Source of the DNA: Bifidobacterium breve
Lineage (GTDB): Bacteria > Actinomycetota > Actinomycetes > Nanopelagicales > Nanopelagicaceae
DNA: 64,000 bases
Assembly (NCBI GenBank): GCA_945860245.1
Contig: CAMAPO010000003.1
Coordinates: 41,863-105,862, forward strand
Direction of reading: 5' to 3'
Shown piece after piece: positions 52,408 through 54,368 of this stretch; position 1 is the stretch's first letter; the number at the start of each line of letters is the position of its first letter. Both the position numbers and the translations under genes were made by a program. A model generated the notes under the pieces. The model was not told where the DNA came from. It did not search any database and worked only from the letters and a program-made list of their open reading frames with translations.

Positions 52408-52481
52408 ACCGCTGTAGCTCAATGGATAGAGCATCCCCATAACTAAGGGAAGTGTAGCGGGTTCGAATCCCCTCAGCGGTA
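52408..52481 (+). tRNA. Atypical tRNA-like gene with extended acceptor stem
   Basis: ACCGCTG/CAGCGGT acceptor, TA, a perfect D-stem GCTC/GAGC with loop AATGGATA, and T-loop TTCGAAT give a tRNA layout of 74 bases. Oddities: the acceptor helix continues outward to 11 perfect pairs (GCGTACCGCTG with CAGCGGTACGC, 52404-52484); the anticodon stem TCCCC/AGGGA has a C-A mismatch; loop ATAACTA would give anticodon AAC with a pyrimidine at position 37; the T-stem has a C-C mismatch; the variable loop has 6 bases. The 5' half resembles tRNA-Arg. It may be a pseudo-tRNA, an unusual tRNA or another structured RNA. A terminator follows. Confidence 0.5.
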
Positions 52482-52488
52482 CGCACCA

Positions 52489-52544: not shown

Positions 52545-53027
52545 CTACCCACAACTTATGTTGTGAATATCGGCGAACATATCCGCCTGCCTCCCCGGAC
52601 GCTCCAACACGTAATCACCACAAACCTGGCAAAAGGCGTCGTAGTAATAAACCCCGCGCTCTTCCATCCACTTGTAGTCATATATAAATGCAACAACAAC
52701 CTCACCGAAATCCGGCAACGACCTGTGACCACGCGCGCGATGCGCCGCATCTAGATCCAACTGCGCAAGCCCACCGACTTCGGCCTTGGCCCCCATCGGA
52801 ATTACCAAACCACACGTGCAGTGCCATTCTCTCCCCGCGTAATTTACATATCCCCAATGCCACTTCTGTTCTTGCCAACCTTTCAAATTGGCATAGCGCA
52901 GCCAATTCTTAAAGCGCCCGTACTTTTCCATCGTTCCGCCAGGTGTGTCATTCTGTTTTTGCTTCAACTCGATTAACAACTCAGGAGCAACGCTTACATC
53001 AAGATATTTCTTCTTTGCTTTTGGCAT
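52545..53027 (-). CDS. Orphan protein with two zinc-finger-like cysteine clusters
   Basis: 160 aa from ATG 53027 (MPKAKKKYLDVS); the track adds three residues. No family recognised. The N-terminal 60 residues are basic and helical; then WHCTCGLVIPMG with HRARGH about 25 residues later forms one possible metal site, and FCQVCGDYV with HNISC at the end forms a second (C-x2-C...H-x3-C). Codon use is more GC-rich than neighbouring genes (runs such as cgcgcgcgatgcgcc), suggesting recent acquisition. It lies next to an atypical tRNA-like gene, a usual place for mobile cargo. DNA or RNA binding is plausible but unproven. Confidence 0.6.
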   Translation of the reverse strand: MPKAKKKYLDVSVAPELLIELKQKQNDTPGGTMEKYGRFKNWLRYANLKGWQEQKWHWGYVNYAGREWHCTCGLVIPMGAKAEVGGLAQLDLDAAHRARGHRSLPDFGEVVVAFIYDYKWMEERGVYYYDAFCQVCGDYVLERPGRQADMFADIHNISCG

Positions 53028-53233
53028 AACAAACACAGTCCTTAATGGACCTCATATTGAGACCCGCTCTTCTGGCGGTGTCATTCATCGCCAGCAGGTC
53101 TTCTCTAGAACCACCGTGCGCGGTTGGCGCGGTTGGTACTAAGCAAGCTAAAGGCTTAACGCTTAGTTCTTGACCTAGGTAAAAGATACATCCAGCCACC
53201 GTCAACTCCGAGTAGCCCAGCCCAAAGCCCACC

Positions 53234-53247
53234 CGAACACCTGTTCG
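53234..53247. promoter_or_regulatory. LexA (SOS) box
   Basis: CGAACACCTGTTCG; read on the minus strand, CGAACAGGTGTTCG matches the Gram-positive consensus CGAACRNRYGTTYG fully. It lies in the 341-base gap between the divergent zinc-finger-like and TPR genes. Confidence 0.7.
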
Positions 53248-53304
53248 AAATCTGTGCTAAAGTCCGCTTCCCCCTAAGGAACCCCCAAGTCACGGCAACG
53301 CCCC

Positions 53305-53327
53305 TTGTCAGTGACCCTCGGTAACTT
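53305..53327 (+). promoter_or_regulatory. PafBC-type (RecA-independent) DNA-damage promoter
   Basis: TTGTCAGTG-N8-TAACTT fits the actinobacterial RecA-NDp motif TTGTCRGTG-N8-TANNNT at every defined position, 42 bases before the GTG of the TPR gene. The rest of the 53028-53368 gap has no convincing gene; track ORFs there are short and lack ribosome sites. Confidence 0.75.
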
Positions 53328-53368
53328 TTGCAACTGTCCGAAGCACATTCCCAAAGAAGAAGGAAACG

Positions 53369-54313
53369 GTGAGCGCAGAAAACAACGATGAGAACAAGAC
53401 CCAAGAGCTAGAACTCTGGGAGCGCATGAGTACAACCGAAGGTGCCGAAAGAGCTGAAGTCTTAGATGAACTCAGCCACATCGCATACCGGCGAGATGCT
53501 TTCAACGAATGCTTGCAACTCGTTGATACATCAATCGATATCTACTTCAAACTAGGTATGGATTCACATATTAAAGAACTTATCCACCTCTACGAAGGAA
53601 AAGCATTTTCACTGCGCCACTTAGAACGGCCCGCAGAATCTGCAGATACCTTTGAAGAAATAGCCACGTTGCATCAGATCAATGATGATACAAATGGTTA
53701 TATAAGAGCCAAGCGCGCCGCAGCCTGCGATTGGTATGACGCCAGAGAATGGCAGAAATCACTTGACGGACATATAGCCGCACAAGGTGCAATTGATCCA
53801 GATGCCACACCGATGTCGATGGGGACCGACCTCTTAAATATCGGAACTGCGCAGATTAAATTAAATCTGCACACCGAAGCAATTGCAACTTTCTTAAGCG
53901 CTCGCAAACTATTTAAGGAAGTGAAGAACCCGGAATTCGTTAACTGGGCCGATCAATATCTAGCGATTACATATGCAGTGCTAGAAAATGGCCCAGAAGC
54001 AAAGTTCCACGCCAAGCATTACTTTAACTATTCAAAAGTTGCCGAAGATATGTCAATGGAAGGCTTTGCACGTTATCGCCTTGGCATCGCACATCTACTC
54101 TGCCAGGAGTATGAAGATGCAGAAAGAGAACTAGTCTCAGCCTTAGAACAGCTAACACTCGATGAGAATAAAGATTGGGAAGATATTCTCGGCGCCAATC
54201 AAGCACTAGCCAAAGTGCTCACCGCACTTGGCAAGGAAGAAGAAGCCAACATCCGGCTAGAACGTATCGCCACTATCGCAGAAACGATCTTCGGCGATGC
54301 AGAAGCCGCATAA
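53369..54313 (+). CDS. TPR-repeat protein, probably DNA-damage inducible
   Basis: 314 aa from GTG 53369, with AAGGA 4-8 bases upstream. Almost entirely helical with tetratricopeptide-like units, for example ECLQLVDTSIDIYFKLGMD, HLERPAESADTFEEIATLH, KLNLHTEAIATFLSARKLF, CQEYEDAERELVSALEQL and ALGKEEEANIRLERI. Strongly acidic; no signal peptide or membrane segment, so cytosolic scaffold or interaction protein. The upstream LexA box and PafBC motif argue for induction by DNA damage. Possibly cotranscribed with the next gene. Specific partner unknown. Confidence 0.8.
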   Translation: MSAENNDENKTQELELWERMSTTEGAERAEVLDELSHIAYRRDAFNECLQLVDTSIDIYFKLGMDSHIKELIHLYEGKAFSLRHLERPAESADTFEEIATLHQINDDTNGYIRAKRAAACDWYDAREWQKSLDGHIAAQGAIDPDATPMSMGTDLLNIGTAQIKLNLHTEAIATFLSARKLFKEVKNPEFVNWADQYLAITYAVLENGPEAKFHAKHYFNYSKVAEDMSMEGFARYRLGIAHLLCQEYEDAERELVSALEQLTLDENKDWEDILGANQALAKVLTALGKEEEANIRLERIATIAETIFGDAEAA

Positions 54314-54368
54314 CGCGCGTGTCACTGCAGCGGTTGCAATCGCAGCCGCTGCAGTTTTAGACTCCAGG

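What the first reader, a model, noticed from the sequence alone, without database searches (positions are those of the whole stretch)
53234..53368. TPR gene under two DNA-damage signals: LexA box and PafBC promoter
CGAACAGGTGTTCG (minus strand) matches the Gram-positive SOS box, and TTGTCAGTG-N8-TAACTT matches the RecA-independent actinobacterial damage motif; both lie within 140 bases upstream of an acidic TPR protein. Double control is known for a few mycobacterial repair genes. An uncharacterised TPR protein placed there would be a new damage-response factor in a streamlined aquatic bacterium.
Basis: partly seen in the sequence, partly recalled or inferred. Interest (0 to 1): 0.75.

Follow-up and report, generated by a model that had tools for sequence, protein, structure and literature searches.

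The report
DNA-damage-controlled TPR gene, freshwater actinobacteria
A protein of unknown function in tiny freshwater actinobacteria sits behind two conserved DNA-damage switches (LexA and PafBC) that otherwise guard only the core repair genes recA, lexA and the mutagenic polymerases, so it is very probably an overlooked damage-response gene that can be tested in a cultured relative.

Summary
The window genome (1.39 Mb, same genus as Ca. Planktophila versatilis) has lexA, recA and adjacent pafB-pafC. It holds only four exact CGAAC-N4-GTTCG boxes: lexA/LysM gene, recA, the DUF6504-dnaE2-dinB operon, and this TPR gene. In three complete relatives carrying the gene the box occurs at the same four places; in two lacking it, only at the three core loci. 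Across 33 genomes and 6 genera the box (22 of 33 loci) and a PafBC motif (29 of 34) are kept upstream of the gene although synonymous sites are saturated; 20 core TPR paralogues have neither. The layout is a tandem pair: an upstream promoter overlapped by LexA and a downstream PafBC promoter, as at mycobacterial recA. In this clade's own recA and dnaE2 promoters, LexA instead sits 1 nt past the PafBC -10 hexamer. I infer OR logic for the TPR gene and AND logic for the core genes. In 17 genomes the next gene encodes a membrane-anchored exported protein with four invariant cysteines, absent here. What the protein does is unknown; a damage-induced envelope or growth-checkpoint adaptor is my low-confidence guess. 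No expression data exist.

The parts
53234..53247 (.). LexA (SOS) box CGAACACCTGTTCG
   Evidence: Exact match to the actinobacterial consensus; one of four in the genome; conserved in 22 of 33 orthologue upstream regions
53258..53263 (+). Predicted -10 (TAAAGT; TACTCT in most relatives) of the LexA-controlled promoter P2, preceded by TGTG
   Evidence: TA-N3-T lies 10 nt after the LexA box in 21 of 22 orthologues and 12 nt in the other; aligned block
53305..53327 (+). PafBC (RecA-NDp) promoter P1: TTGTCAGTG-N8-TAACTT
   Evidence: Matches published consensus; TGTCRG-N10-TANNNT in 29 of 34 orthologue loci
53369..54313 (+). Accessory TPR protein, 314 aa, acidic, GTG start
   Evidence: Pfam TPR_12; dN/dS 0.05-0.16 among orthologues; tree separates it from core paralogue
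54325..54358 (+). Probable intrinsic terminator: CTGCAGCGG / CCGCTGCAG stem followed by TTTT; the gene is likely monocistronic here
   Evidence: Read directly from sequence (printed); not found by the stricter pattern scan, so inference

Best explanation
The TPR gene is an accessory member of the LexA (SOS) and PafBC DNA-damage regulons of Nanopelagicaceae. Two promoters lie in tandem: distal P2, whose -35 region is covered by the LexA box, and proximal P1, a PafBC (sigma-adaptation) promoter. In undamaged cells LexA silences P2 and inactive PafBC leaves P1 off. On damage, RecA filaments trigger LexA cleavage (P2 opens) and ssDNA-loaded PafBC recruits RNA polymerase to P1. As the LexA box lies 50-85 nt upstream of P1, either signal alone should suffice (OR), unlike recA and dnaE2 of the same clade, where LexA sits 1 nt past the PafBC -10 and should block it (AND). 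The product is a soluble acidic TPR adaptor; where the partner gene is present it is probably co-expressed with a membrane-anchored four-cysteine exported protein. My best guess for function is a damage-induced checkpoint or envelope adaptor (about 30%). Shown: sites, conservation, regulators, gene order. Inferred: binding, induction, OR/AND logic, function. The confidence given is for the regulatory claim, not for the function.
For: Motifs exact and in place. Only 4 exact LexA boxes genome-wide, 3 at lexA/LysM, recA, DUF6504-dnaE2-dinB. Complete genomes G040, G065, G273 with the gene have 4 boxes, at the same loci; G014 and G083 without it have 3. LexA box 22/33, PafBC motif 29/34, against 0/20 for core paralogues. 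Sites kept between groups A and B at 35% protein identity with dS saturated while flanks and spacer differ. Spacing grammar. PafBC genes and LexA present. Tandem P2/P1 order as in mycobacterial recA (PMC5656591). Partner gene immediately downstream in 17 genomes.
Against: No transcript, binding or phenotype data. The LexA box is missing in 11 loci, including all three of one genus (G185, G188, G189) and G082, which keep only PafBC; five group-B loci of genus g50 keep neither or only a variant PafBC site. The partner is absent from the window genome. The LexA-linked promoter has no recognisable -35. OR/AND logic rests on spacing only. Nothing identifies the TPR ligand.
Confidence: 0.85

Rival explanations
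1. The LexA box serves the divergent minus-strand gene (163 aa, 52545-53036) rather than the TPR gene; the PafBC motif alone serves the TPR gene.
For: The box lies between two divergent genes; the divergent gene has a SAM-IV riboswitch leader at 53061-53175, so its promoter is probably near 53180-53205.
Against: The box follows the TPR gene through many different upstream neighbours and stays about 115-165 nt before its start codon; conserved sequence begins at the box and runs towards the TPR gene. In G001 and G082 the divergent gene is separated from the TPR gene; in G001 the box stays with the TPR gene.
Confidence: 0.04
2. The sites are relics of common descent or of a mobile cassette, without present regulatory use.
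For: Patchy distribution, tRNA-adjacent variable loci, LexA box lost in several lineages.
Against: Group A and B proteins are 35% identical with synonymous sites saturated, yet box, -10 and PafBC motif remain while the spacer has changed in length and sequence.
Confidence: 0.05
3. The gene is a mobile anti-phage or toxin-like module whose damage induction senses phage attack, with the exported protein as effector. (Compatible with the regulatory claim; a rival on function.)
For: Some islands hold methyltransferases, NERD-UvrD helicases, restriction helicases and a DarT1-associated NADAR antitoxin nearby; patchy distribution; damage-type induction would fit.
Against: Neither protein matches any PADLOC model; no relative of the TPR protein in phages or viral contigs; neighbours in the window itself are metabolic genes; partner relatives also occur alone without the motifs. 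No control for neighbour composition was run.
Confidence: 0.2

Closest known systems
Mycobacterial recA dual promoter (LexA-dependent P2, PafBC-dependent P1)
   Same: Two damage promoters in tandem, LexA one distal and PafBC one proximal to the start codon; same consensus sequences (PMC5656591)
   Different: Gene is an uncharacterised TPR protein, not a repair enzyme; in this clade recA itself has the two elements overlapping (1 nt apart) instead
SOS accessory genes such as the LysM cell-division suppressor divergent from lexA (YneA-like; chiZ/Rv2719c in mycobacteria, the latter from my own knowledge)
   Same: Non-repair gene under LexA, probably also PafBC, in the same small regulon
   Different: YneA-like proteins are exported LysM proteins; here the regulated protein is a cytosolic TPR protein, with an unrelated exported partner in about half the genomes
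TPR regulators NsdA / AfsR TPR domain
   Same: Weak profile similarity of the TPR array (NCBIfam NsdA 40 bits against a cut-off of 75, AfsR 27 bits, for a group-B member)
   Different: Far below curated cut-offs; no DNA-binding or NOD domain in the 314 aa
Core TPR paralogue of Nanopelagicaceae (between a SpoU-type methyltransferase and dacB)
   Same: Homologous over the whole length, 27-31% identity
   Different: Present in most genomes at a fixed place, no LexA or PafBC site in 20 of 20 upstream regions

Membership tests
LexA (SOS) regulon | High-scoring LexA box in the promoter region | tested here: met
   Exact CGAACACCTGTTCG; same form as boxes at lexA, recA, dnaE2
LexA (SOS) regulon | LexA and RecA encoded in the genome | tested here: met
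   TIGR00498 219 bits; recA N-terminus behind its own box
LexA (SOS) regulon | Box conserved at orthologues | tested here: met
   22 of 33 loci with full upstream sequence; lost in some lineages
LexA (SOS) regulon | LexA binding and derepression after damage | not testable with these tools
   Needs binding and expression assays
PafBC regulon | RecA-NDp promoter tTGTCRgtg-N8-TAnnnT at a plausible distance from the start | tested here: met
   TTGTCAGTG-N8-TAACTT, -10 ends 41 nt before GTG; 29 of 34 orthologue loci
PafBC regulon | PafB and PafC encoded | tested here: met
   Adjacent WYL proteins, second with HTH_PafC 105 bits
PafBC regulon | RecA-independent induction requiring pafBC | not testable with these tools
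   Needs a mutant or in vitro transcription
TPR protein | TPR repeats above curated cut-off | tested here: met
   PF13424 34.9 bits, cut-off 30.1; profile hits to solved TPR folds such as LGN and Rap phosphatases
Known anti-phage defence system | Match to a PADLOC model | tested here: not met
   No family at E 0.01 for TPR or partner
NsdA-family TPR regulator | NCBIfam NF053720 above cut-off 75 | tested here: not met
   40.2 bits for a group-B member; no hit for the window protein

The most novel reading that the evidence does not exclude
A two-gene, laterally moving module (cytosolic TPR protein plus membrane-anchored four-cysteine exported protein) is a previously unknown damage-induced envelope checkpoint or cell-fate switch of freshwater actinobacteria, wired as an OR gate on LexA and PafBC while the core repair genes are wired as AND gates by a fixed 1-nt spacing.
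Probability: 0.25. Interest if true: 0.8.

Novelty: new member of a known kind. Interest (0 to 1): 0.6.

Why it matters
Nanopelagicaceae (acI) are among the commonest bacteria of sunlit fresh water, with genomes near 1.3 Mb. Exact LexA boxes mark only three core loci in them, and this TPR gene is the one accessory locus added to that set. A gene of unknown function kept under the two guards of recA in such a reduced genome points to a damage-response step not yet described. The different LexA-PafBC spacing at core and accessory promoters gives a testable rule for how actinobacteria combine two damage signals. One carrier, Ca. Planktophila versatilis MMS-IA-79, has a complete named genome.

Tried and rejected
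Pfam ArdA hit (17 bits, cut-off 27) rejected as noise. A relaxed PafBC pattern finds 52 places genome-wide, below its control, so the relaxed motif alone proves nothing; only the strict motif, its place and its conservation count. A second near-consensus PafBC hit at C3:36881 lies in front of a CPBP-protease-like gene (name from my own reading of the sequence) and was not followed further. My first PafBC pattern had the wrong spacer and found nothing, corrected. Viral and phage searches for the TPR protein were empty. Literature searches found no LexA- or PafBC-linked TPR gene and no SOS study of Nanopelagicales in the library searched.

Full report
WHAT IS THERE. The window is G000:C3:41863-105862 of a 1.39 Mb genome. 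Upstream of the GTG at 53369 lie CGAACACCTGTTCG (53234-53247) and TTGTCAGTG-N8-TAACTT (53305-53327). The second matches the RecA-independent consensus tTGTCRgtg-8nt-TannnT given in PMC5656591; the first matches the Streptomyces LexA motif tCGAAC-N4-GNNCGa (PMC9380542). The ORF is a 314-aa acidic TPR protein, pI 4.66.

IS IT CHANCE. Only four exact CGAAC-N4-GTTCG sites exist in the genome. Their loci are: lexA with a divergent LysM gene resembling the division suppressor YneA; recA; a DUF6504-like gene heading a dnaE2-dinB operon (the DUF6504 name is from my own recall); and the TPR gene. Relatives behave alike: complete genomes G040, G065 and G273 have exactly four CGAACANNTGTTCG sites at these four loci; G014 and G083, which lack this TPR paralogue, have three; reversed control patterns give zero. 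The genome has LexA and adjacent PafB-PafC followed by tatC.

CONSERVATION. A search of 296 genomes of the family (here identical with the order) finds the accessory TPR protein in 33 genomes of 6 genera, 34 loci. A more distant core paralogue (27-31% identity) is found in most genomes; in the two examined it lies between a SpoU-type methyltransferase and a transport gene with dacB close by. In accessory loci the LexA box is present in 22 of 33 with full upstream sequence and the PafBC motif in 29 of 34; in 20 core paralogues neither occurs; shuffled upstream sequences predict 0.005 and 0.03. The alignment shows islands of conservation (box, -10, an unexplained CCGCTTCCCCC stretch, TGTCAG...TAACTT, start) with variable flanks and spacer. 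The tree separates core from accessory with full support and places the dual-motif genes on both sides of a deep split between groups A and B. dN/dS is 0.05-0.16 within groups and dS is saturated between them, so the sites are very probably under selection.

ARRANGEMENT. At recA and the dnaE2 operon the LexA box begins exactly 1 nt after the PafBC -10 hexamer in 13 of 16 promoters examined, and at the LysM gene 8-10 nt after it in 7 of 7; G014 recA and G185 dnaE2 lack a recognisable PafBC motif, and G185 recA has the motif 22 nt downstream of the box. At the TPR gene the box lies 50-85 nt upstream of the PafBC motif, with its own TA-N3-T 10 nt behind it in 21 of 22. This is the P2-P1 order of mycobacterial recA. 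From established mechanism (LexA occlusion; PafBC sigma adaptation activated by ssDNA, PMC11804915) I infer OR logic here and AND logic at the core genes. This is inference from spacing.

PARTNER AND SURROUNDINGS. In 17 genomes the next gene, touching or overlapping the TPR stop or close behind it, encodes a 160-190 aa protein with one N-terminal membrane segment and an exported domain with four invariant cysteines (membrane segment and export read from the sequence by eye). It has no Pfam, NCBIfam, PADLOC or PDB-sequence match. Its relatives also occur alone, without LexA or PafBC sites in the loci checked. The window genome has no copy. Gene neighbours differ between genomes. tRNA-Val genes lie near the gene in nine loci, and some neighbourhoods contain methyltransferases and helicases typical of defence islands, though I ran no control for the latter.

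FUNCTION. TPR proteins are protein-binding adaptors; profile hits to LGN, Rap phosphatases and AfsR are generic. Regulation and the exported partner suggest a damage-induced checkpoint or envelope role, at about 30%; a defence role is an alternative at about 20%; otherwise unknown.

VERDICT. It is a new member of a known kind of regulon, with an unknown product. Named carriers are Ca. Planktophila versatilis MMS-IA-79 (NZ_CP016774, both motifs) and Actinobacteria bacterium IMCC26077 (CP015606, PafBC motif only).

Noticed in passing
window 53061-53175 (-), gene 52545-53036 (-): A SAM-IV riboswitch (Rfam RF00634, 66.5 bits, cut-off 38) leads an unannotated 163-aa ORF with Cys pairs (CTCG, CQVC) and no family match. 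The same riboswitch is found near the TPR gene in L080, L082, L114 and L123.
   Followed up: partly
window 52408-52482 (+): tRNA-Val next to the locus; tRNA-Val genes, some relatives with odd 4-base anticodon calls, lie near the TPR gene in nine loci, suggesting an insertion hotspot.
   Followed up: partly
L088:4960-5508 and relatives: Uncharacterised exported family with four invariant Cys (..CADFG..IKWxxWxxxxAxGxGxYxxNDCxPDCAxG..) in 91 of 296 family genomes, also seen weakly in two Streptomyces plasmids and one viral contig.
   Followed up: partly
L033, L032, L182-L201: LexA box begins exactly 1 nt after the PafBC -10 at most recA and dnaE2 promoters of this family: a fixed two-regulator promoter grammar.
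   Followed up: yes
window 53264-53274 and orthologues: The stretch CCGCTTCCCCC just after the LexA-linked -10 is nearly invariant in the dual-motif loci; its role is unknown.
   Followed up: no
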